Part shown: in pieces, positions 9,368 to 42,975 of the stretch
Layout: the number at the start of each line of letters is the position of its first letter
How positions within the stretch are numbered: the first letter of the stretch is position 1
DNA from: Vulcanimicrobiota bacterium
GTDB taxonomy: Bacteria > Vulcanimicrobiota > Vulcanimicrobiia > Vulcanimicrobiales > Vulcanimicrobiaceae
NCBI GenBank assembly: GCA_027459645.1
Contig: DAIDHQ010000019.1
Span: 1-64,000, forward strand
Direction: 5' to 3'
DNA length: 64,000 nt
Notes under the pieces: generated by a model
Seen by the model: the letters and a program-made list of their open reading frames with translations, nothing else
Database searches by the model: none
What the model was told of the DNA's origin: nothing
Program-made: the position numbers and the translations under genes

Positions 9368-10396
9368 CTACGCCGGAATCAGCCGTTCCGTTGCAGCGAC
9401 GATCCGATCCACGTCGAGATGCGCGATGCACGCGTAATCGGAACAGGTCTCCTTGGTATCGCCCGGATGGCACGGATACGCCGGCCGAACGACGGCCGTG
9501 TGTCTTCCGAGCGGTCCCCACCGATCCGGCACGTCGGACTGAAAGGGAAAGATGCCGACCGTGCGCGCACCCACGGCAGCCGCAACGTGCATCGTCCCGG
9601 TCGTAATGCCGACGAAGGCTTCTGCCCTTTGCGCGAGCGCGCCGAATGCGCCGATGCCGAGCTTGCCGCTGACGTCGATGATGCGATCCCCGACGGCCCC
9701 GGAGCAAGCGGCGGCGATCGCGCGGTTGATCTCCGCATCCGCATTCGAACCGCTCAAAAGCACGCGTGCGTCGAAACGCTGCGCCAAAGCCGATGCAAGA
9801 CGCGCCCAGCCCGCGACGGGCCAGACGCCGCGTTTGGGGGCGATGGCGTTCGTGGGATGAAGCACGATATAACCGCGTGTGTCGCACGGAGCCGGTCGAA
9901 GCGCGGCGAGCAAGGCTTCGGCTTGCGCGCGGTCTTCATCGGTCGGCACGAACGTCGGGAAATAATCGGCGGTGTCGCAATCGATCGCGCGCGCGTAATC
10001 GAGCAGTATCTGCGCCCACGGCGTCGTGACGTCGCCGCGTTCGCTTCGCACCGGCACCCGCACGGTAAAGCGACGCGAGTATAAACGCCGCGCCTGCCCC
10101 ACACGCACGGGGATTCCCGCCGCTTGCGGAACGTGCGCGGTGCGGGGCGTCGCCCACGTAACGACGCAGGCATCATAATTTCGCTCGCGCAGCGTGGAGG
10201 CAAGTTGCGCTTCGTCGCCGTCGTCATCGACGAGCACGCCGTCGAGATCGGGTACGCGTTCGAGCGTCGAACGGTGCGCGGGAAGCGTCAGCGCATCGAC
10301 TCGCTCGAAGCGCGCATGCAAAGCGCGCCCCACGACGCTTGCAACGAGCGAATCGCCGATGCCGCCGCCGGCGCAATACAATAACGCGCGGCTCAC
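9368..10396 (-). CDS. Glycosyltransferase family 9 (heptosyltransferase-like)
   Basis: A 342-residue GT-B enzyme related to heptosyltransferases. The N-terminus ALLYCAGGGIGDSLVASVVG carries the GIGD motif, VLHPTNAIAPKRGVWPVAGW is the typical central segment, and FVGITTGTMHVAAAVGARTV is the C-terminal donor-binding region (the usual D is replaced by G-I-T-T). The GTG at 10396 overlaps the stop of the preceding GT2 gene. It is paired with GT2 genes on both sides, as in the other GT9 copy of the cluster. Confidence 0.9.
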   Translation of the reverse strand: MSRALLYCAGGGIGDSLVASVVGRALHARFERVDALTLPAHRSTLERVPDLDGVLVDDDGDEAQLASTLRERNYDACVVTWATPRTAHVPQAAGIPVRVGQARRLYSRRFTVRVPVRSERGDVTTPWAQILLDYARAIDCDTADYFPTFVPTDEDRAQAEALLAALRPAPCDTRGYIVLHPTNAIAPKRGVWPVAGWARLASALAQRFDARVLLSGSNADAEINRAIAAACSGAVGDRIIDVSGKLGIGAFGALAQRAEAFVGITTGTMHVAAAVGARTVGIFPFQSDVPDRWGPLGRHTAVVRPAYPCHPGDTKETCSDYACIAHLDVDRIVAATERLIPA

Positions 10397-11265
10397 TCGT
10401 CCAAAACGCGCTTGAGTTCGCGGACGTACATGCCGTCGAGGAACTGCGCCTTCGCCAGGTTGCGCAAGACCGGCGGCGCCTTTTCGCTCGTCGCGATGCC
10501 CGCATAGATCGCGAGCAACTGGTCGGGCTTCAGAAACGATGCGCGCAAGAGATTGACGGGATGCGCGCCGGTCGCCATCCTCACGCGCTGCGTCGGCTGC
10601 TTTTCCAAGAAACGCCGCGCCATGCGCGCCTTTTCGAGCGTCTTGCGCGCTTCGACTTCGAGCGTGTTCTCCTCGGGCGGCTTTATATGCCACAAATACG
10701 CGTCCCACGCGAACTTCCAGCGCATTCCCGCATCGCGTAAGCGCACGCCGAGTTCGGTGTCTTCCCAGCCGTAGAGATTGAACGTTTCGTCGAACCCGCC
10801 GACCGCATCCAACGAATGCTTGGGAATCGAAACGTTGCACGTGCACAAGAACGCGCGCGAATAATTGGCGAACGTCGGCTTGGGCCGTTCGTCGTACGAT
10901 CCGACGTTCATGATCGGTCCGTTCACCACCAAATTGCTCGTGCCGTGCGCCGCTTCGTGCGCCGCCAGAAACCCGGGCGGGGCGACGATATCGTCGTCGC
11001 AGAAGACCACGATGTACCCGGTCGCCACGGCGAGCCCGCGATTGCGGGCCTTGGCGCGATTCGGTTCGCCTTCGTACACGTAGCGCACGGGATAGGCGTT
11101 GCGTGAGGTCTGGCGTTCCGTCACGTCGCGCGTGTCGTCGGTCGACGCGTTATCGACGACGATCACTTCGAACGACGGCGCTCCGATCTGCGCTTCGAAC
11201 GATGCCAGCGCGCGTTCGAGGTACGAGGCACGGTCCTTGGTTGCAATGACGATCGAGAGACGCAT
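10393..11265 (-). CDS. Glycosyltransferase family 2
   Basis: A 290-residue GT2 enzyme: MRLSIVIATKDRASYLERAL, then VDNAST near residue 37, FCDDDIVAPPGF as the metal-binding acidic loop, and GGFDETFNLYGWEDTELGVR as the GT7C-like segment. A basic C-terminal region follows. It starts five bases downstream of the LpxB-like gene and its stop overlaps the next GT9 gene, so it lies in the middle of the coupled glycan operon. Donor and acceptor cannot be read from sequence. Confidence 0.92.
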   Translation of the reverse strand: MRLSIVIATKDRASYLERALASFEAQIGAPSFEVIVVDNASTDDTRDVTERQTSRNAYPVRYVYEGEPNRAKARNRGLAVATGYIVVFCDDDIVAPPGFLAAHEAAHGTSNLVVNGPIMNVGSYDERPKPTFANYSRAFLCTCNVSIPKHSLDAVGGFDETFNLYGWEDTELGVRLRDAGMRWKFAWDAYLWHIKPPEENTLEVEARKTLEKARMARRFLEKQPTQRVRMATGAHPVNLLRASFLKPDQLLAIYAGIATSEKAPPVLRNLAKAQFLDGMYVRELKRVLDE

Positions 11266-11270
11266 GTCGC

Positions 11271-12488
11271 TTACAACCCGCCAAGTTCCACGAGCGATTC
11301 GGCCATGCGGTCTGCGGCACCGACGTGCGCTTCGTAGAGCGCGCCCAACCGCTCCCCCGCCTCGCGCTGCCACGCGCGGTCGTCGAAGCGCTCGAGCGCG
11401 ACCCGCGCCACGCGGCCGGGCGTCAGCGTTCCGTGCAGTTCGTGCACGAGCATTTCACCGGCATCGATATTGGGCTGCGTGTGGAAGCGAAAGCGCTTCG
11501 CAACCTGCACGACGGCCGTCCGCTTCAGCGGCTTGCCGATCAAGGGAATCCGGTCGAGATAGGTCAGCGGGCCGTTTACCGTGATTTTCTCCGGCGCGTT
11601 CATCGGCGTAATGGCGATGGCCGGAATGCCGAGCGCGGCCAGTTCGATCGTCTTGGTTCCCGGCAGCGTAACCACCAGCCGCGCGTGCTTTGCGGCGGCG
11701 AGCGCGTTGCGCAGAACCGGGAAGCGCGCGTGACCGTCCGCGCTCGTGAGATACGGCATGCCGCCCTCCTCGTGCAGCACGCCGCGTTGCGCGAAGACGC
11801 GCGGATCGCCGCCCGCTTCAACCGCCGCACGAACGTCGGCGAGCGGCGTGAAGGGCGAGATGCCGAACGCGATCGGCAGTCCCGGCCGCTCGCGCACGAT
11901 TCGCAGCGCCATCGTAAAAAAGAACGGGATCAAATTTTCGACTTCGTAGCCGCGCGAGCCGGGCATGATCACGATGCCGTCTTCGGGCACGCCGGCTTCG
12001 ACCGGCTGCTGCGCTTCCAAGATCGCGCCGTCGATGGCCAGATTGCCGACGGTGACGATGCGTTCGGCCGCCGTCTCCCAATCGCGCAGCTGCTGGACGT
12101 TGGCGTCGTCGACGGCGAAGAAGCGCGCGAATTTTTCGCGATACGATGCCTTGGAGAATTTGTAGCTCGCGGCGGCGCCGCCCAATCGCGCGTGCACGCG
12201 CAACGCGTGCATCAGATCGCCGCCGAGATACTGCACGACGTCCACGCTCTCCGGGACGTTTTCGACGCTTCGCCCGAGCGCGAATTGCACGTACGCCTTC
12301 GGTTCGATGACGCGCGCGCTCGGAAAGAGCCGTCGCGCGAATTCGGCTTCGTAGCCGGTTGCGTATTCGTCGGGAACGCAGAACAGCGTAACGTCCAGCG
12401 AGGGGTCGTGCTCGTAGAGACGCCGCACGAGCGGACGAAACCAGCCGGCAACTTCGCCCGGACCGTTAGCGGTGATCGCGATGCGCAT
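11271..12488 (-). CDS. LpxB-like glycosyltransferase (GT19-related)
   Basis: A 405-residue protein resembling lipid-A-disaccharide synthase. It begins MRIAITANGPGEVAGWFRPL, the LpxB-type N-terminal strand and glycine loop, and has VIMPGSRGYEVENLIPFF, equivalent to the LLPGSR-x-EI motif of LpxB. TLPGTKTIELAALGIPAIAI matches the SGTATLE segment. It is diverged from canonical LpxB and resembles the lipid-A-disaccharide-synthase-related group, so the exact acceptor is uncertain. Position between hldC and a GT2 gene supports a role in surface glycolipid assembly. Confidence 0.8.
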   Translation of the reverse strand: MRIAITANGPGEVAGWFRPLVRRLYEHDPSLDVTLFCVPDEYATGYEAEFARRLFPSARVIEPKAYVQFALGRSVENVPESVDVVQYLGGDLMHALRVHARLGGAAASYKFSKASYREKFARFFAVDDANVQQLRDWETAAERIVTVGNLAIDGAILEAQQPVEAGVPEDGIVIMPGSRGYEVENLIPFFFTMALRIVRERPGLPIAFGISPFTPLADVRAAVEAGGDPRVFAQRGVLHEEGGMPYLTSADGHARFPVLRNALAAAKHARLVVTLPGTKTIELAALGIPAIAITPMNAPEKITVNGPLTYLDRIPLIGKPLKRTAVVQVAKRFRFHTQPNIDAGEMLVHELHGTLTPGRVARVALERFDDRAWQREAGERLGALYEAHVGAADRMAESLVELGGL

Positions 12489-12500
12489 TGCGGCTCGCTA

Positions 12501-12992
12501 TCAGGCTCCGTAACGCGAGATGATCTGGGCGATAACGTCGGTGGTGCTGTGGCCCGCGACGTGGGGTGCGAGACGGATCACGCCGCCGTGCGATTCGACG
12601 ACGGTCTTTTCCGGAAGCTCGTCGGCACGATATTGATCGCTCTTGACGTGCACGTCCGGGCGCAACCGGTCGAGCAGCACTTCGGGCGTACGCTCGCCGA
12701 ATCCGACGACGGCATCGACGCTGCGCAGCGCGCGCAAGAGCATCGCGCGATCTTCGAAAGGAACGATCGGACGGCGTTCGCCCTTGAGCTTGCGCACCGA
12801 CTCATCCGAGTTCAGCCCGACGACGAGCAGGTCGCCCTGTTTGCGTGCCCACGCGAGATACGCGACGTGTCCCGAATGCAACACGTCGAAACAGCCGTTG
12901 GTAAACACGACGCTCTTGCCGTCCTCGCGCATGCGTTCGCGCCAGGCGACCGCGTCGTCGACGCCCAGCAGCGGCGCGAAGAACTCAGGCAT
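12501..12992 (-). CDS. hldC: D-glycero-beta-D-manno-heptose 1-phosphate adenylyltransferase
   Basis: A 163-residue nucleotidyltransferase that makes ADP-heptose from heptose 1-phosphate and ATP. The HSGH signature (39-42) inside TNGCFDVLHSGH is the ATP-binding motif of the cytidylyltransferase-like superfamily. In E. coli this activity is the C-terminal half of HldE; here it is a separate protein overlapping the kinase gene by 8 bases. ATG at 12992 is the first good start after the kinase frame. Confidence 0.93.
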   Translation of the reverse strand: MPEFFAPLLGVDDAVAWRERMREDGKSVVFTNGCFDVLHSGHVAYLAWARKQGDLLVVGLNSDESVRKLKGERRPIVPFEDRAMLLRALRSVDAVVGFGERTPEVLLDRLRPDVHVKSDQYRADELPEKTVVESHGGVIRLAPHVAGHSTTDVIAQIISRYGA

Positions 12993-13968
12993 GCTCGTGT
13001 TCGACGAGCGCGACGATTTCGTCGGCCGACGCCGTCGCCGTGCCGAGCTTCTCGACGACGGCACCCGCCGCAAAGTTCGCCAGCTGCATCGCGCGTTCGA
13101 TCGGCGCGCCGGCAGAGAGCGCGAGCGCGAGCACGGCGACGACGGTGTCGCCGGCGCCGGAGACGTCGAAGACCTTACGCGCAACCGACGGCACGTCGAG
13201 CCGCGCGCCGTCCGCGCCGAAGAGCGACATGCCGGCTTCGCCGCGCGTGATGACCACGTACTCGCATGCCAGCTCTTCCAAAAGCGCCGCACCCGCGCGC
13301 TCGAGCGATTCGGCGTCGGTGATGCGCACGCCGGTCGCGGCGGACGCTTCGTGCACGTTCGGCGCGACGCAGGTCACGCCGCGAAACATCGGGAGATTCT
13401 GCGGTTTCGGATCGGCGAGCACGAGCGCGCACGCGCGCGCCGCTTCCACGATCTCGGGCGAAAGCAATCCTTTCGCGTAGTCGCTCAGGATGACCGCGTC
13501 CACCTGCGCCGCCCGCGAACGGACGTACTGCGCGATGCGCGCGCGATCGACCGCCTGCAACGGCGCCGCGACTTCCCAATCTGCTCGTACGACTTGCTGA
13601 TTGTGCGCGACGACCCGCGTCTTGCGCGTGGTCGGACGGTCGCCGACGGCAAACACGCCCGCGTCGTCGACGGCCTCTTCGCGCAGCAAGCGCCGGACGT
13701 CGGCGGCAAATCCGTCGTCGCCGATCGTGCCCACGAATTCGACCTGCGCTTCGAGCGCGCGGAGATTGTTCGCCACGTTTCCCGCGCCGCCGAGCTTGAA
13801 CGAATGATCGGTGACTGCGACGACCGGTACGGGCGCCTCGGGAGAGATCCGCGACACGGTGCCCCAAATCCATTCGTCGATCATCAAATCACCCACGACG
13901 AGGATCTTGCGTCCGCGCATGCGTTCGAATAGCGTGCGCGCGTCGGGCGGTTGAAGGCCGACGCTCAC
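12985..13968 (-). CDS. hldA: D-glycero-beta-D-manno-heptose-7-phosphate kinase
   Basis: A 327-residue PfkB/ribokinase-fold kinase that phosphorylates heptose 7-phosphate at C1. Typical features are ILVVGDLMIDEWIWG at the start, the glycine-rich KLGGAGNVANNL, the ADP-site region, and DVSGAGDTVVAVLALAL with the catalytic Asp. It corresponds to the N-terminal domain of HldE. The GTG at 13968 overlaps the gmhA stop, which favours it over an in-frame ATG 42 bases upstream inside gmhA. Confidence 0.94.
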   Translation of the reverse strand: MSVGLQPPDARTLFERMRGRKILVVGDLMIDEWIWGTVSRISPEAPVPVVAVTDHSFKLGGAGNVANNLRALEAQVEFVGTIGDDGFAADVRRLLREEAVDDAGVFAVGDRPTTRKTRVVAHNQQVVRADWEVAAPLQAVDRARIAQYVRSRAAQVDAVILSDYAKGLLSPEIVEAARACALVLADPKPQNLPMFRGVTCVAPNVHEASAATGVRITDAESLERAGAALLEELACEYVVITRGEAGMSLFGADGARLDVPSVARKVFDVSGAGDTVVAVLALALSAGAPIERAMQLANFAAGAVVEKLGTATASADEIVALVEHEHA

Positions 13969-35639: not shown

Positions 35640-35694
35640 TGTCATCCTGAGCGGCGCGTTTGCGCTTCGCGCAACAGCTCCGCTCAGAATGACA
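35640..35694 (+). repeat. Dispersed hairpin repeat, copy B
   Basis: Ends TGTCATCCTGAGCGG and CCGCTCAGAATGACA are inverted repeats with one mismatch. Inside is the stem TTGCGC/GCGCAA with loop TTC. The right end overlaps the 3' end of the minus-strand gene 35684-36001 and provides its TGA. It lies between two convergent genes. Confidence 0.8.
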
Positions 35695-36001
35695 AAGGGG
35701 CGCGAGCCGCGATCACCAGTAACGCCGCGTCGGCTGCTTCGCGCACCGTTGCATCCGGGTCGTCGCTGCGGATCTCGTTCAATTCCTCGACGCACCAGGG
35801 CTGGCCGACGATCGCAAGTCGCTCCACCCGATCGATGCGCAGTTCCAAATCGAGTTCCGCTTCGGGCGAGGGCGCTTCTGCAAGCGCGAGCGGCGGCGCG
35901 GTTTCTCGGCGCAACAGCGTCCCGACGACGAAGAGAATCGCGCCCAGCAAAAAGAGCGCGAGGATGAAAATGCCGAAGTGATTGTTGCTAGTCGACGGCA
36001 A
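35684..36001 (-). CDS. Small single-pass membrane protein with HEAT-like tail (module copy 2)
   Basis: A 105-residue protein: one N-terminal membrane helix (about 9-30, IFILALFLLGAILFVVGTLL), then Arg-Arg, an Ala/Pro/Glu linker, and a pair of helices (VERLAIVGQPWCVEEL, VREAADAALLVIAA) resembling one HEAT repeat. The RR after the helix suggests the tail is in the cytoplasm. The TTG start at 36001 overlaps the end of the giant gene by 14 bases. It matches in layout the protein at 39297-39710. The last residues and stop come from a dispersed repeat. Confidence 0.72.
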   Translation of the reverse strand: MPSTSNNHFGIFILALFLLGAILFVVGTLLRRETAPPLALAEAPSPEAELDLELRIDRVERLAIVGQPWCVEELNEIRSDDPDATVREAADAALLVIAARAPLSF

Positions 36002-39000
36002 TGTGAGCCGCGTTGCGCAGCGCGTCGAGCACCTGCGCGAGCGCTTGATCGAGCGTACGGTTTACGCTCGAAGTCAGCACGCGGTGGAACTCTTCGAGCG
36101 GCAGCTCGTTGAGCACGAGGAGCACGTTGAGCAATTCCGAGCGGTAGCGTTCCAACGCGTTGCGATCGGCAACGTCGTTGTAAATCGTCGTGCCGAGCAA
36201 TTGCGCGTTGACGAGCCACGGCGTCACCGATCCGACCGGCGTCGTCTCCAACTCCGGCATCAGCGAACGAACTACGTCGAGTTCGATCTGCCCTTCGATG
36301 CGAATCGTTCCGGGTGCGGGCGCTTGCGGTTTCGCGGTCGGCGCGAAGACCAGATCGTTCAGCAGGTTCATCAGCGCATCGCGGCCGTCGCGGTCTTCTA
36401 AATCCTTCGTTGTGAGCGACAAGCGCGGCATGCGCAAGCGCACGAAGAGGCGTTCGAGCGGCGCGCGCACGGCGCGGCTCGCGCCGGCAAAGGCTTGCGT
36501 CAATTGCTGCGGCGCATCGATCGCGTTTTCGGGGAAGAACATGCGCAGCGCAAAGAGGTGCTGCACCAAGCCGCCCGCACTGTCGCTGCGCTCGAGCATC
36601 TTAATGACGTTGGCCAAACGCTCCGGCGTGAAATCGATGAAGAGTACCGGCGTCGGCAGTTCGACTTCGGCTGCCGGTGCAACGAGCGATTCCGCGTGCT
36701 CGGCAACGATCTCCGCGATCGCGCGCGGCGGCGCTTCTTGCGCGACGGGCGGCATTTCGGCCGTTTCGACGGGTGCGAGTTCCGGCACCGACGGCGCCGC
36801 GATCGCTTCGTATTCCGGCGGAAGCCCCGGCGGTTCGTACGGAGGCGCGCCGGTCGGGAAGATCCGCGCGATCGAAATCGGCGTTCCGGCGATCGATTCG
36901 GTCAACGACGGTTGCGCTTGCACGCGAACCGTCGGTGCGGCGATCGCAAACGTCGTGCCTTCGCCCCATTCAAACACCGTGCGCGTATCGAGCGGCGTTC
37001 CGGCGGGAAGCGGCGCCATCACCATCATCTCCCAGCGCAAGCGCAGTTCGATGTTGGGATTGACGTCGGCCAGCACGAGGCCGCGCGCCGACCACAGTTG
37101 CGACGCGCCGGCGTCGTCGACAATCGGCATGCCGTTGATCGTCGTCGTCGACGGCACATAGACGGCAAGATTCGTCGGGACGACGCGAATGGTCAGCCGG
37201 TCCGCGGGCCCGTCGCCGTCGTTGCGCAAGCGAATTTCGTAATATAAGCGTTCGCCCGCGTTGACGAGCTCGCCCGGAATCGCAACGAGCTGCGCGCTCT
37301 GCGCGAACTGCGCTTCGGCGTGCGTCGGAACTTCGAGCGCGGGAAACTGCATCGGGCTGATGCCGCGACCGTGCAGCCATCCGTCGATCGCAAGCTTGCG
37401 GTTTCCGGCGACGGCGCTGAGCAGACGCAGCGTCAGACGCGCTTCGTGTACGCTCTCGGGAGCGACGTCGGCAAAGGCGATGCCTTCGCGATCGCGGCGC
37501 GCGTCGACCGCGCGTTCCACCACGAGTTCGGGCGGCAGGGTCAGCGCCAGCCGCGCCTCGCGCAACACGTCGGATCCGCCGTTATGCACGCGTACCACGA
37601 CGTCGATCGTGCGATTCGGACGCAACGCTTCGTTCGACGCGAGCTCCCATTCGACGCGATCGATCGCCGGACGCGAACGAATAACGAGCGTCGCCGTGCC
37701 CAAATCGACGGCCCCGTCGGCATGTTCGAGAATCACGCCGAGCGTAGCAGTCGAACGATCCGGCACCTTCGACGCGATTTTTGCGTGAACGGTAAAAATG
37801 CGTTCGTGGTGCGGGTTCACGACGCCGAGCGAAACCGGCTCGTTGTACGGCGCGCTTTCGCCCTGCTCTTCGCTCACGCGAAGTTCGGTCAGGTATAACC
37901 CCGGCATCAGCCGCAAACGCACGTCGGATTCGGGTGCGGTGCCGTCGTTATAGACGTGAACCGTAAACGAAACGTCCTCACGTGCCTGCGCGGCGCCGCG
38001 ATCCGCGTTGACGTAGTTGCGCGCGCGGCCGAAGCGTGGCGCGACGCGTACCGCCAAGCGGCGCGAGAAATTGCGTTCGCCGGTCTTCCAGCGCAGCGAC
38101 GCGCTGACGGGAAGCACTGTCTCGCCCGAGTGCGGCACGGCGACCGTTGCAGCGATGCCGACTTCGGCCATCCGGCCGGCCGGCAACGAGCCGAGCGAAA
38201 ACGCCAAACCTGGAATTGAATCGTCGCTGACCGGCTGCCCGTCGACCTGCGCCGAACCCGGAGCATACATCAGTCCGGGCGGTAAGATAAAGGCGAGCTG
38301 CATGCGCTCGGCGATGCCCGTTCCCGCGTTCATCGCGCGCAATACCATCGGCACGCGCATGCCCGGCGTCACCACGTCGTCGCTGAGCACCAGCAGTTGC
38401 GTTTCGTCGTTTTCGAAATCGACCGGCGAAGCGACGACGATCTCGGCCGAGGCGATCGGGAATTCGTTCAAGCCGCGTGCACCGACCGTGCCGGCCGCGC
38501 GGATGCGCGTGCCGTCGAGCAGCGGCGAATCGATCGTCGCCTGATATTCGACCTGCACCGATTGACCCGGCGCAAGCCGTTCGCTCACGACGGTCGAATT
38601 TTCGTAGTCGAAGACCTCGCCTTCGTTATTGACCAGGCGGCCGTCGATGCGCGTGCTGCGCGCCAGGTAGGTGGTATGTTCGGGCGTCGGAAGGATGAGC
38701 ACCACGTCGTGCGCGCTCGAAGAACCGCTGTTGCGGATCGTGGCGCGCACCGAGATGACGTCGCCGGGCTTGGGCGCCGGCGGCGCCGAGAGCGAGACCA
38801 GCGTTGCGCTGTTCTGCAGGTCGGGACGGCTGCGAACGGTGAGGCGCTCGATGTTCGAGGCGATGAGCCCCGTCTGGTCGGTCACGAGCGCGGCTTGAAA
38901 GACCATCTCGCTCGCGTCTTCGATCGTATCGTCGACCTTGAACGTGCACTGCACGCGCCGCTGCGCGTTCGGCTCCAGCTCGCCGATCGGCGCGCCGTTG

Positions 39001-39263
39001 GAATCGACGAAGCGCAACCCTTCGGCCAGCGGGGCGTCGTCGACGGTATCGGCCCCCTCGATGTGCGAGACGCCCTGCGGCAACGCGAAGCGCACGCGCA
39101 CGCCTGTCGCCGCGGCACCGCCGAGGTTCGAGAACGTGAATTGCGCGCGAATCGTATCGCCGGGCACGGTGGTGCGCGACGGATCGAGGCTAAGGGTCCG
39201 GAGTGTCTCGGGCAATGCCGGAGAGCCCGGGGAGAAAATGCCGGTCAACGTCGTGGACGACAC
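35988..39263 (-). CDS. Giant DUF11-like repeat protein (module copy 2)
   Basis: A 1,091-residue protein. From about residue 15 to 800 there are six beta-sandwich units of about 125-135 residues, each with the DUF11-like pattern of a Val-rich strand, N-x-G, hydrophobic strands and L-P-x-G (for example RATIRNSGSSSAHDVVL). A Pro/Ala/Glu-rich linker (800-870) leads to a helical domain from about 874 that begins FTPERLANVIKMLE and contains HLFALRMFFPE and LERLFVRLRMP. No signal peptide or membrane helix is visible, which is odd for DUF11. The GTG start at 39263 follows AAGGGGG. Unit order is colinear with the paralogue at 39712-42975. Confidence 0.8.
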   Translation of the reverse strand: MSSTTLTGIFSPGSPALPETLRTLSLDPSRTTVPGDTIRAQFTFSNLGGAAATGVRVRFALPQGVSHIEGADTVDDAPLAEGLRFVDSNGAPIGELEPNAQRRVQCTFKVDDTIEDASEMVFQAALVTDQTGLIASNIERLTVRSRPDLQNSATLVSLSAPPAPKPGDVISVRATIRNSGSSSAHDVVLILPTPEHTTYLARSTRIDGRLVNNEGEVFDYENSTVVSERLAPGQSVQVEYQATIDSPLLDGTRIRAAGTVGARGLNEFPIASAEIVVASPVDFENDETQLLVLSDDVVTPGMRVPMVLRAMNAGTGIAERMQLAFILPPGLMYAPGSAQVDGQPVSDDSIPGLAFSLGSLPAGRMAEVGIAATVAVPHSGETVLPVSASLRWKTGERNFSRRLAVRVAPRFGRARNYVNADRGAAQAREDVSFTVHVYNDGTAPESDVRLRLMPGLYLTELRVSEEQGESAPYNEPVSLGVVNPHHERIFTVHAKIASKVPDRSTATLGVILEHADGAVDLGTATLVIRSRPAIDRVEWELASNEALRPNRTIDVVVRVHNGGSDVLREARLALTLPPELVVERAVDARRDREGIAFADVAPESVHEARLTLRLLSAVAGNRKLAIDGWLHGRGISPMQFPALEVPTHAEAQFAQSAQLVAIPGELVNAGERLYYEIRLRNDGDGPADRLTIRVVPTNLAVYVPSTTTINGMPIVDDAGASQLWSARGLVLADVNPNIELRLRWEMMVMAPLPAGTPLDTRTVFEWGEGTTFAIAAPTVRVQAQPSLTESIAGTPISIARIFPTGAPPYEPPGLPPEYEAIAAPSVPELAPVETAEMPPVAQEAPPRAIAEIVAEHAESLVAPAAEVELPTPVLFIDFTPERLANVIKMLERSDSAGGLVQHLFALRMFFPENAIDAPQQLTQAFAGASRAVRAPLERLFVRLRMPRLSLTTKDLEDRDGRDALMNLLNDLVFAPTAKPQAPAPGTIRIEGQIELDVVRSLMPELETTPVGSVTPWLVNAQLLGTTIYNDVADRNALERYRSELLNVLLVLNELPLEEFHRVLTSSVNRTLDQALAQVLDALRNAAHIAVD

Positions 39264-39296: not shown

Positions 39297-39710
39297 CTAG
39301 GAGCTTTGCGGAGTTTGGACATCGAGCAGCGAGAGCGTTTGCGCGATCCGGTCCGCGCGCGCGCCGGGGTGCGCGTTCAAAAAGCGTTCGACCATCGCGC
39401 GCCGGCCGCTGCCGGTGAGCGCGTGGGCCGCGGCAAGCGACACCGCTTCGGAGGGGTCGCTGAGCGCGTGCTCCAGCAGTTGCTGCGAGCGTTCGTCTTC
39501 GAGCGCCGCCACCGCGAAGATCATGTCGCACCGCGCCGATTCCGAGAGGCCCGCGAACTCGTCGCCCGCCTCGTGCGTCCACGCCGTCGTCACCTGCAGC
39601 GGCTCGCCTTCGCGTTTGGTGTAGGCGCGCTCTTTGGCCCGCGGCGCGAAATACGCGTACGCGGCTATCGCGATGCCGACCAGGATGACCGCAACGACGA
39701 CGACCGTCAT
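39297..39710 (-). CDS. Small single-pass membrane protein with HEAT-like tail (module copy 1)
   Basis: A 137-residue protein with an N-terminal membrane helix (about 2-22, VVVVAVILVGIAIAAYAYF), a basic stop-transfer segment (PRAKERAYTKR), and a helical tail. The tail contains DMIFAVAALEDERSQQLLEHAL and EAVSLAAAHALTGS, which look like HEAT-repeat helices. The charge pattern places the tail in the cytoplasm. The ATG is one base downstream of the giant gene stop, a strong sign of co-expression. Homologous in layout to 35684-36001. Confidence 0.74.
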   Translation of the reverse strand: MTVVVVAVILVGIAIAAYAYFAPRAKERAYTKREGEPLQVTTAWTHEAGDEFAGLSESARCDMIFAVAALEDERSQQLLEHALSDPSEAVSLAAAHALTGSGRRAMVERFLNAHPGARADRIAQTLSLLDVQTPQSS

Positions 39711-39711
39711 C

Positions 39712-42700
39712 TTAGACGGTGCTGGCGTGCAGCGAGGTGCGTACCACGTCGAGCGCCGCATCGAGCGCGACGTCGCGCCGTCGTTGCAGCGCGTCGAGAA
39801 ATTCGCTCGCGTCGCCGTCGACGAAGGCATCGAGCCGCTCGATCAGCATGGATCGATAGTGCGCGAGTTGCGGCGTTCCGTCGGGCAGCATGCGTGCCAT
39901 GATCGCCCACGGCAGCGCCGAAGCGAGTTCGGTTTCGCTCAAGCGCTCCCCAAGGTCCGCGATGGCATCGGCGTCGATGCTTCCACGCAGCACGACCGCG
40001 GCGTTCGGCGTTTCGGCGGCCGAACCGTGAACTGCAGCAAGATCGTGCACGAGCCGTTCCAGCGTCGCGCGCAGCGACGGCGTTTCGATGTCGCGCGGTG
40101 CGATCACATAGTTCGGCAAGCGAAGTTTGATGAAGAGCCGGTCGAGTTCGTCACGTAACCCTTCGCGCATCGACTCGACGGAGCCGACGTGCGCGTCGCC
40201 GATGACTTCGGGGAAGAATGCGCGCAGCGCGAACAGGTGCGTGATCAAACCGTCGAACCGCGCTTCATCGAGGAATCGAAGCACGCGCGCGTGCCGTTCC
40301 GGCGTAAAGCTGACGAGCACCCCGAGCGCATTGTCGGCGGCGAGCGATCCATCGACGTAACTGCCGTTGGTCCGATTCCCGTTGCTCGATGCGAGCGCCG
40401 GCACGTCGCCGTGCATGGGCATATATGCCTCGCGCGCGGCATTTATGCCGGATTCGCCGTTGACGGGCGTCGCCGGCGGCAGTTCCATGAAACGATCTTC
40501 GGTGAGCGCGCGCTGACCGCCGCTGAACGACGGTCCGACCATGCCGTCCAATCCGAACGGCAAGCCGGGAATCGCATTCGCGAAGACGGGTGTCGCGCGG
40601 ACTTTCAGTTCGTTGGAGAGCACTTCGTCGTCGCGATCGCCGTCGTATTGCACGCGCGCGACGCGCACGATCGCTTCGCCGGCCGGCAAACCGTTGTGCA
40701 CCACGTCGCGGAACTTGATCGTCGCTTCGACGCCCGGATCGACGTCGTTGAGTACGATGCCCCGATCGCTTGCAAGCGCGGAGTGCGCGCCGACGTCACG
40801 AATCGGCACGTCGTTGACGGTCGTAGAATTCGGTACGTAAATCAACGACTCGGGCTGCGCGCAGAAAATCTGCACGCGTCGTGCCGGGCCGTCGCCGCCG
40901 TTGCGGACGTGCAACGTCCATTCGATCGTTTCGCCGACGTCGACGACGTCGATCGGTTCGCTGCGCAGCGTACCGACGGAAAAATCCGGTTCGGCGGTGG
41001 TAACGATCGTCAGCCGGTCGAGCGGCACGGGAAGCATCGCATCGGCCGTCAATACGCCGTCGACCGTTACCGGATAATCTTTCGCGAGGCTTCGCAACAA
41101 CCGCAATCCCAAACGCGCTTCGGCGGTCGTACCGGGAGCGATCTCCCCAAAGACCAGCTTCGATTTCTCGCGCGTCGCACCGTCTACGGTTTCCAAGCGC
41201 GCTTCGGGAGAAACATAGAGACGCACGCGCACGTTGTGCGCGACGTCGCTGCCGACGTTCGTGAGTTTCACCAGCACGTTCGCAAGCTGGTTCGGACGCA
41301 GCGTCTCGTCGGTCTCGAGCGTAAACGCCGAACTCTTCGGCGAAAACGCGGGATGCGAGTCCGTCCGCCATGCCGCTTCACCGAGCGGCGTTTCGCCCAG
41401 TTCGCGGCTGTGGGCGCTGGCACCGATGCGAATCTCGCTGCGATCCGCGTACGGGCTGCGCAGACGCGCGCGCAGATGCAGACGGCGCGTGGCATACGAT
41501 TCGAGCGTACCGATTTCGGCCGCATCGCCGTCGAGGGCGACGCGCGCGTTCTTTTCGGAGAGGCGGACTTCTTCGAGCGCGGGATCGAGACGCAGATGCA
41601 GCACCAGGTCGGTCGCGGGCGCGCTGCCGTCGTTGCCGAGCAAAATCTCCGCTTCCACTTCCTCGCCCGGATGCACGATCTCGCCGCTGGCGCGCACGAT
41701 GGCGTTGCGGCGAGCGGGCAGGGCGGGTTGCGAATGGACGCTGACGACGCGGTCGAAGCGGCGCTCGGAGCGATCGCCGGCCGGCTCCCAGCTCAGCGTT
41801 GCCGCCACCGGCAGGGTGGCGTCGTCGGGTAGCGGCGATGCAACCATCGCTTCGCAGCGCAACTCGACGCGTTCGTCCGAATCGATCCGGCCGAGTTCGA
41901 AGCTCAAGCCGTCCTTTTTCTTCGTTTCTCTGAGCGGCCGGCCGTCGATCGAGGTGGCGCCCCGCACCGGCAGAAGACCGTCGGGAAGCTCGAGCGCGGC
42001 GACGACGTTCTCGGCGGCCGCGGAACCCGCGTTGTGCGCGATCAGCACCATCGTGACGCGATGGCCGGGCCGGACGTCGTGCGAGGGTTCGATCGAAAAC
42101 GTGGTGCGGTCGTCCTCGAATTCGGGGGCCGACCGGACGGTCAGCGACGCCGGTTCCAGATCGAACGCGGCCGTTTCTTGCGATGCGACGACCGCGCGGG
42201 CGACGATCGAGGTTCCGTCGTCGAGCGGCGAATCGACGCGCACCCGGTAAATGACGGTTGCACTGGCGCTCGCGGCGAGCGCGCTCGTGACGATCGGCGC
42301 GTAGACGCGGTCGAACGGCAGGCCCAGATCGCGCTCGATCTCCCGGCCGTTCACGCGGGCGGAATTCGGAACGTAGGTGGTGTGCTCGGGGATCGGCGCC
42401 ACCACGACGACATCGCGCGCGCTCGACTCGCCGGCGTTATGGACGCGTACCGTCACCTGCGCCTCGGTACCGGGCGTCGGAACCGCGCTACGCGACTCGA
42501 TGGTAACGCCGGTCAGATTGTTGCTGAGTTGCGGCCGGCTGCGCGCGATCAGGCGGACGATGTTCGACCCGACCGGCGCCACCTCGAACGAGGCGACCGC
42601 CGCTTGCAGTTCGATCGTCGTGCCGTTCTCGATCGCGCCCGCGACGCTGTACGAAATTTCGATCCGGCGCTCTTCGCCGGGCGCCACGTCGCCAATGTGC

Positions 42701-42975
42701 GCGCCGGAGCGCGAAAGCAACGGAGAGTTGCCGTGCTCGTCGTCGAGATTGACCGAGTCCAATTCGCCCGTGCCGACGAGATAGACGAGGCCGTCCGGCA
42801 GATTGAAGCGCACGCGGACTCCCGTTGCGGGCGCGCCGCCTTGATTACGGAACGTGAACGCTGCACGCACCGTCATTCCAGGTTCCAACTCGCGGTCGGG
42901 CGAAACGACGAGCGTTCGGAGGCCCTCCGGCAACGTCGGTGCACCTGGCGCAAAAACTTCCGACAGGGTCCGCAT
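39712..42975 (-). CDS. Giant DUF11-like repeat protein (module copy 1)
   Basis: A 1,087-residue paralogue of 35988-39263. The N-terminus RTLSEVFAPGAPTLPEGLR aligns with TGIFSPGSPALPETLR of the other copy. Six DUF11-like units follow in the same order, with matching landmarks such as PEHTTYVPNSARVNG in unit two and YVPNSTTVNDVPI in unit six. A Gly/Ser/Asn-rich linker ends near residue 885, then the helical domain FTPERHARVLRFLDE, HLFALRAFFPE, LDRLFIKLRLP. No signal peptide, membrane helix or sortase-type tail. ATG 42975 was preferred to in-frame upstream starts that enter the divergent aminotransferase. Confidence 0.8.
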   Translation of the reverse strand: MRTLSEVFAPGAPTLPEGLRTLVVSPDRELEPGMTVRAAFTFRNQGGAPATGVRVRFNLPDGLVYLVGTGELDSVNLDDEHGNSPLLSRSGAHIGDVAPGEERRIEISYSVAGAIENGTTIELQAAVASFEVAPVGSNIVRLIARSRPQLSNNLTGVTIESRSAVPTPGTEAQVTVRVHNAGESSARDVVVVAPIPEHTTYVPNSARVNGREIERDLGLPFDRVYAPIVTSALAASASATVIYRVRVDSPLDDGTSIVARAVVASQETAAFDLEPASLTVRSAPEFEDDRTTFSIEPSHDVRPGHRVTMVLIAHNAGSAAAENVVAALELPDGLLPVRGATSIDGRPLRETKKKDGLSFELGRIDSDERVELRCEAMVASPLPDDATLPVAATLSWEPAGDRSERRFDRVVSVHSQPALPARRNAIVRASGEIVHPGEEVEAEILLGNDGSAPATDLVLHLRLDPALEEVRLSEKNARVALDGDAAEIGTLESYATRRLHLRARLRSPYADRSEIRIGASAHSRELGETPLGEAAWRTDSHPAFSPKSSAFTLETDETLRPNQLANVLVKLTNVGSDVAHNVRVRLYVSPEARLETVDGATREKSKLVFGEIAPGTTAEARLGLRLLRSLAKDYPVTVDGVLTADAMLPVPLDRLTIVTTAEPDFSVGTLRSEPIDVVDVGETIEWTLHVRNGGDGPARRVQIFCAQPESLIYVPNSTTVNDVPIRDVGAHSALASDRGIVLNDVDPGVEATIKFRDVVHNGLPAGEAIVRVARVQYDGDRDDEVLSNELKVRATPVFANAIPGLPFGLDGMVGPSFSGGQRALTEDRFMELPPATPVNGESGINAAREAYMPMHGDVPALASSNGNRTNGSYVDGSLAADNALGVLVSFTPERHARVLRFLDEARFDGLITHLFALRAFFPEVIGDAHVGSVESMREGLRDELDRLFIKLRLPNYVIAPRDIETPSLRATLERLVHDLAAVHGSAAETPNAAVVLRGSIDADAIADLGERLSETELASALPWAIMARMLPDGTPQLAHYRSMLIERLDAFVDGDASEFLDALQRRRDVALDAALDVVRTSLHASTV

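What the first reader, a model, noticed from the sequence alone, without database searches (positions are those of the whole stretch)
36000..36700. Shared C-terminal helical domain as a possible new domain family
Residues from about 874 (copy 2) and 885 (copy 1) to the end are alpha-helical and conserved between the copies better than the linker in front. Landmarks are FTPER, HLFALR-x-FFPE, a basic L-(E/D)-RLF-(V/I)-(R/K)-LR-(M/L)-P and a leucine-rich tail. I cannot match it to a known family. It is the likely functional end of the protein, while the six beta units act as spacer or binding array.
Basis: partly seen in the sequence, partly recalled or inferred. Interest (0 to 1): 0.6.

Follow-up and report, generated by a model that had tools for sequence, protein, structure and literature searches.

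The report
New domain paired with membrane HEAT protein
The tail of two large repeat proteins in an uncultured bacterium is a previously undescribed protein domain, and almost every gene that carries it is followed by a small gene for a membrane-anchored partner, which suggests an unknown scaffold attached to the inside of the cell membrane.

Summary
Both paralogs (B, 35988-39263; A, 39712-42975; minus strand) end in a ~215-residue domain (CTD). It matches no Pfam, NCBIfam, PHROGs or PDB family by sequence. AlphaFold models it confidently (pLDDT 95.0), yet Foldseek finds no PDB or viral match at E<=0.001. It is alpha/beta rather than purely helical and looks internally duplicated. Of 149 genomes held for the phylum (Eremiobacterota), 78 have it, all in the window's own order.

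71 of 75 testable CTD genes are followed by a small gene, M, encoding one transmembrane helix plus a HEAT-like domain (window: M1 39297-39710, M2 35684-36001). In one genus (10 of 10 genomes examined) M is fused to the second CTD and that paralog's DUF11 array is gone; in another, M and an array-less CTD are separate neighbouring genes. So the CTD is a module linked to a membrane protein. "Array = spacer" is not supported: the arrays are as conserved as the CTD, the N-terminus more so.

Best guess: a membrane-tethered cytoplasmic Ig-array scaffold. Docking, location and function are inferred.

The parts
   Evidence: ORF and alignment of starts; DUF11 by Pfam
39715..40320 (-). CTD-A
   Evidence: profile match 39721-40338; alignment
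39297..39710 (-). gene M1: 137 aa, N-terminal TM helix plus HEAT-like domain; starts 1 nt after the stop codon of A
   Evidence: dN/dS 0.23-0.37 over six pairs
36918..39194 (-). array of six Ig-like units of B (residues ~24-782)
   Evidence: Pfam DUF11 and full-length AlphaFold model
36663..36914 (-). linker of B (residues ~784-867), poorly conserved, pLDDT mostly under 50
35991..36647 (-). CTD-B: the domain of the finding (residues ~873-1091)
35684..36001 (-). gene M2: 105 aa, N-terminal TM helix plus HEAT-like tail; inferred TTG start overlaps the end of B by 14 nt
   Evidence: dN/dS 0.24-0.49 over six pairs

Best explanation
The CTD is a lineage-specific docking and assembly domain. It is one half of a two-part module whose other half is M, a small inner-membrane protein with one TM helix and a cytoplasmic HEAT-like domain. 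The DUF11-CTD proteins A and B carry no export signal. They are proposed to stay in the cytoplasm, dock through the CTD on the HEAT-like part of M at the inner membrane, and hold their six Ig-like units as an extended arm, forming a membrane-tethered scaffold. Shown by sequence or prediction: the domain family; its near-constant gene pairing with M; the predicted C-in topology of M; the M-CTD gene fusion in one genus; and, with moderate evidence, the internal duplication of the CTD. Inferred: the physical CTD-M contact, the cytoplasmic location of A and B, the scaffold role, and what the Ig-like units bind.
For: M follows 71 of 75 distinct CTD genes with room downstream (67 by a TM-ORF rule; 4 more by profile), against 46 of 271 other genes under the TM-ORF rule. 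63 of 72 M1-profile matches in 149 genomes lie directly downstream of a CTD match. Genus g25: M1 and CTD-B form one chain in 10 of 10 genomes examined, CTD dN/dS median 0.15 over 45 pairs. Genus g19: M1 and an array-less CTD-B are separate neighbouring genes. M is HEAT-like by profile (5dcq_A, one stretch, E 9e-10). 75 of 76 distinct M have more K/R after the TM than before it. No TM-like or signal-like start in 27 A and 13 B proteins (highest 19-residue Kyte-Doolittle mean 1.31 in the first 63 residues).
Against: No contact between CTD and M was computed or measured. Distances of CTD-B and M2 correlate (r 0.70) no better than with flanking genes (0.67-0.81), although CTD-A and M1 do (0.90 against 0.65-0.77; 9 genomes). 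Exceptions without M: L037 B, L045 B (already fused to M1), L061, L076 B. In g19 the array-less CTD evolves fast (dN/dS 0.47), so it may be decaying. Gene pairing and fusion show a functional link, not what the function is. Signal peptides were judged only by hydropathy.
Confidence: 0.42

Rival explanations
1. The CTD is mainly a pairing domain: A and B, or two copies of one, join through their CTDs, and M only localises or stabilises the pair.
For: A and B are tandem paralogs kept side by side; in g25 and g19 the second CTD is kept without its array next to a full-length A.
Against: Many genomes have one CTD gene only (32 of the 78 genomes have a single match, some of them incomplete), and these still have M, e.g. 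L053, L056, L059.
Confidence: 0.2
2. A and B are exported by a route without a classical signal, with the CTD as the signal and M as its membrane receptor; the arrays act at the cell surface, as many DUF11 proteins are thought to (recalled).
For: Most DUF11 arrays known to me are extracellular (recalled); M is a membrane protein always next to the CTD gene.
Against: No secretion apparatus gene was found paired with the module; in g25 the CTD itself is tethered to the membrane with a predicted cytoplasmic side, which an export signal would not need.
Confidence: 0.15
3. The CTD is an enzyme or signalling domain whose activity M controls at the membrane.
For: Conserved polar residues H42, R84, D94, E96, R101, Y180 (numbering of alignment A2).
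Against: No family or fold match to an enzyme. Whether these residues cluster was not checked.
Confidence: 0.12
4. A polymorphic toxin with its immunity gene: a long repeat protein with a C-terminal toxin domain and a small downstream immunity protein (layout recalled).
For: Gene order: long repeat protein, C-terminal domain less conserved than the N-terminus, small membrane protein directly downstream.
Against: The CTD is the same family throughout, not swapped between unrelated domains; conserved place in a housekeeping region; no secretion signal; in g25 'toxin' and 'immunity' would be one protein.
Confidence: 0.06

Closest known systems
DUF11 / B_ant_repeat proteins (PF01345, TIGR01451)
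   Same: The six beta units of A and B are DUF11-type.
   Different: The CTD and the downstream M gene are not part of those families; A and B lack an export signal.
HEAT-like repeat proteins (HEAT_2 PF13646; designed alphaRep proteins)
   Same: M's soluble part matches HEAT-like repeats by profile.
   Different: M is short, with an N-terminal TM helix, and stays below Pfam's cut-off (20.8 of 27.7 bits).
Cytoplasmic Ig-array proteins of the ciliary central apparatus (entries 9ijj, 7sqc)
   Same: The best Foldseek matches of the full-length model of B are such arrays; works-like comparison only.
   Different: Low TM-scores (0.11-0.25 among these rows), eukaryotic, and no CTD or M; not a membership claim.

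Membership tests
DUF11 (PF01345), for the arrays of A and B | score above Pfam's cut-off of 24.6 bits for the whole protein | tested here: met
   92.2 bits (B) and 114.8 bits (A), 5 stretches each
Any Pfam family, for the CTD | score above a family's cut-off | tested here: not met
   no family for CTD-B; among 53 members 17 families with scattered weak hits, best E 0.0012 in one member
Known fold, for the CTD | clear structural match in the PDB | tested here: inconclusive
   Foldseek best E 0.21; VIA-align best Z 5.3, rmsd 5.9, 146 aligned; a weak match shows neither sameness nor novelty
HEAT_2 (PF13646), for M1 | score above Pfam's cut-off of 27.7 bits | tested here: not met
   20.8 bits, E 0.00049
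HEAT-like repeats in the wide sense, for M1 | profile similarity to solved HEAT-like proteins | tested here: met
   alphaRep chains, e.g. 5dcq_A with a single stretch E 9e-10; 6veh_A (HEAT repeat domain protein) 3.5e-10 over 4 stretches
Polymorphic toxin with immunity gene | C-terminal domains of unrelated families exchanged between related proteins | tested here: not met
   one homologous CTD family in 78 genomes
Polymorphic toxin with immunity gene | toxicity neutralised by the downstream protein | not testable with these tools
   needs an experiment
Spore-coat proteins with a SipL domain (considered) | SipL domain (PF12673) in the genome | tested here: inconclusive
   0 of 21 genomes, but no control genome rang either

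The most novel reading that the evidence does not exclude
An undescribed intracellular, membrane-anchored scaffold of Ig-array proteins, specific to one order of Eremiobacterota, built from a new internally duplicated docking domain and HEAT-like membrane receptors: in layout a bacterial counterpart to eukaryotic cytoplasmic Ig-array scaffolds.
Probability: 0.25. Interest if true: 0.8.

Novelty: categorically new. Interest (0 to 1): 0.58.

Why it matters
It turns an unexplained protein tail into a testable two-part system: a new domain with a confident model, a candidate partner, and a natural fusion that predicts the contact. If the scaffold reading is right, a little-known phylum uses Ig-like arrays inside the cell, at its membrane. 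At the least it gives context to proteins of about 1090 residues whose only recognisable part by curated families is the DUF11 array.

Tried and rejected
Spore-coat link (SipL domain): 0 of 21 genomes, uninformative because the controls were silent too; the cultivated species of the phylum is described as non-spore-forming (PMC9758169, passages).

Link to cell elongation because mreC-mreD-mrdA lie next door: the neighbourhood is conserved in many genomes, but those genes are convergent with the module, and the copies of L047-L050 and of L054, L055, L057 and L058 do not show them in the 12-20 kb fetched; no functional link is claimed.

Defence or phage origin: PADLOC and PHROGs gave only weak hits. 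A scan of viral contigs could not be run because alignment A2 had no conserved enough stretch, and was not tried again.

Fold matches of the CTD: none at E<=0.001 in the PDB or viral library; the VIA-align second look is weak.

Array-less CTD-B as a pseudogene: rejected for g25 (dN/dS 0.15, 10 of 10 frames open), left open for g19 (0.47).

Reading-frame caution: in g19 the stretch between A and CTD-B looked like noise in the CTD frame; another frame showed the intact M1 gene.

Rows dropped before counts: L060 and L061 (2 of 46 CTD rows) from the half-domain test and the tree; L076 (1 of 52 locus stretches) from A2; 4 of 79 CTD genes without room downstream; L044, L045, L054, L057 and the four f2 loci from the M1 set; proteins under 1000 residues or with a weak N-terminal match from the conservation profile.

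A first dN/dS run sorted copies by a bit-score threshold that did not fit g25; CTD-B values come from the corrected run.

Full report
WHERE IT IS. The window lies in a genome of the candidate phylum Eremiobacterota (Vulcanimicrobiota in NCBI). The two large genes are on the minus strand between the mreC-mreD-mrdA group and a PLP aminotransferase.

CHECK OF THE OBSERVATION. The CTD is better conserved than the linker. It is not the best conserved part: in 27 A-type and 13 B-type proteins the first 40 residues reach 0.76 and 0.71 mean pairwise identity, while the CTD blocks lie between 0.36 and 0.64, leaving out the short last block. So 'functional end versus spacer' does not follow from conservation.

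THE DOMAIN. Neither window copy matches a Pfam or NCBIfam family in the CTD above a cut-off, nor any PHROG. Scanning all 53 members gives scattered hits, the best E 0.0012 in one member; a profile of the 53 finds no PDB chain better than E 0.17. AlphaFold gives pLDDT 95.0 and pTM 0.90. Foldseek finds no PDB match at E<=0.001 (best 0.21) and none in the viral library. The VIA-align second look peaks at Z 5.3, a level that may mean only a common helical arrangement. This is consistent with a new fold but does not prove one.

INTERNAL DUPLICATION. The predicted elements run strand, then several helices, twice. Profiles of the two halves (44 rows of 46) align in register over 69 columns with score 24.9 and P 7.3e-4, though hhalign's own probability is only 26%. 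None of 200 column-permuted versions of the second half reached that score (highest 18.8), and reversed halves scored 11.5 and 12.2. I take the duplication as likely, not proven.

DISTRIBUTION AND HISTORY. With a 23-row profile, 78 of the 149 genomes held for the phylum have the domain: 74 in the window's family and 4 in a sister family of the same order; no genome of the other families gave a match. The scan of named genomes used a single motif, so distant relatives without it would be missed. In the tree (44 of 46 rows) A-type and B-type copies separate, with the sister family and some copies at other loci apart.

THE MISSED PARTNER. The 450 nt between A and B hold a third gene, M1 (39297-39710, 137 aa): a TM helix, then a HEAT-like domain. 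B is followed by a relative, M2 (35684-36001, inferred TTG start). M1 and M2 profiles are related (hhalign 95.5%, E 1.5e-8). Of 79 distinct CTD genes, 75 have at least 450 nt downstream; 67 of these are followed by a small TM-protein ORF, against 46 of 271 other genes under the same rule. Profiles add 4 more, so 71 of 75. The exceptions are L037 B, L045 B (the fused form), L061 (a very divergent CTD) and L076 B. The genomes are related, so these are not independent cases. Conversely, of 72 M1-profile matches in 149 genomes, 63 lie directly downstream of a CTD match; of the other 9, three are strong (G118 and G082 at contig edges; for G100 the contig end was not checked) and six are weak, at 25 bits or less. 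M1 and M2 look like real genes: dN/dS 0.23-0.37 and 0.24-0.49 over six pairs each.

FUSION AND SPLIT. In genus g25, 10 of 10 genomes examined have, after A, one reading frame of about 360-400 residues that begins as M1 and ends as the CTD of B, with no DUF11 array (one is cut by its contig end). Its CTD is under purifying selection (dN/dS median 0.15, maximum 0.25, 45 pairs), like that of A in the same genus (0.18). In genus g19, five genomes show a separate M1 gene followed by an array-less CTD; in a sixth, L116, the contig ends inside M1. There the CTD evolves faster (0.47, 10 pairs), which may mean relaxed constraint.

MECHANISM. No signal-like or TM-like start appears in the 27 A and 13 B proteins by hydropathy. 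M has its positive charges after the TM helix in 75 of 76 distinct sequences; in the one exception my script picked an over-long start. By the positive-inside rule (established knowledge, not tested) M's HEAT-like part is cytoplasmic. The fusion puts CTD and M on one chain. The simplest reading is that the CTD docks on M at the inner face of the membrane and the six Ig-like units form an arm. Evolutionary distances fit an A-M1 link (r 0.90 against 0.65-0.77 for either with two flanking genes; 9 genomes) but not a B-M2 link (0.70 against 0.67-0.81). The contact, the location and the role are inferred.

WHAT IT RESEMBLES. The full-length model of B shows six Ig-like units, a disordered linker and the CTD (mean pLDDT 85.0, pTM 0.35, so relative placement is unknown). 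Its best Foldseek hits are Ig-like arrays, first those of the ciliary central apparatus, then complement and integrin chains, all with low TM-scores. This is a likeness of stacked units only.

NOVELTY. I rate the module 'categorically new' because no known system that I tested or recall joins a cytoplasmic-looking DUF11 array, this CTD and a TM-HEAT partner. The weak points of that rating are the missing AlphaFold DB and HHpred searches.

IN PRINT? Searches for Eremiobacterota with DUF11 (0 papers) and for at least three of six terms among phylum names, DUF11, B_ant_repeat and HEAT repeat (9 papers, the 8 listed holding no DUF11 or HEAT repeat) found no description. Two broader searches listed nothing on this phylum. 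Only open-licence PMC papers are held. From PMC9758169 I saw passages only; all other papers were seen in listings.

Noticed in passing
L045, L104-L112 (genus g25): M1 and the CTD of B are fused into one protein and the DUF11 array of B is gone; no M2 follows in L045.
   Followed up: yes
L047-L050, downstream of the CTD gene: The single-copy sister family (f2) has a longer M (184-207 aa) whose middle aligns with M2 and whose end aligns with M1 (hhalign 94.6% and 96.0%), as if M1 and M2 kept different parts of an ancestral M.
   Followed up: partly
window 42855-42975 (-) and homologs: The first ~40 residues of A (MRTLSEVFAPGAPTLPEGLRTL...) and of B are the most conserved part of the proteins, yet their role is unknown.
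   Followed up: no
L060:9854-13091 (-): The A gene of this genome is split between two frames (array frame 10266-13091, CTD frame 9854-10417): a frameshift or an assembly error.
   Followed up: no
L055 and L057 (genome G009): G009 is one contig of 3,508,363 bases; Vulcanimicrobium alpinum has a 3.50 Mb genome (PMC9758169), so G009 may be that cultivated species. It has two CTD genes, without the mre genes nearby in the stretches fetched.
   Followed up: partly
window 39297-39710 (-), M1: Weak profile similarity of M1 to the phycobilisome degradation protein NblB model (19.4 bits, cut-off 300), most likely only because both hold HEAT-like repeats.
   Followed up: no
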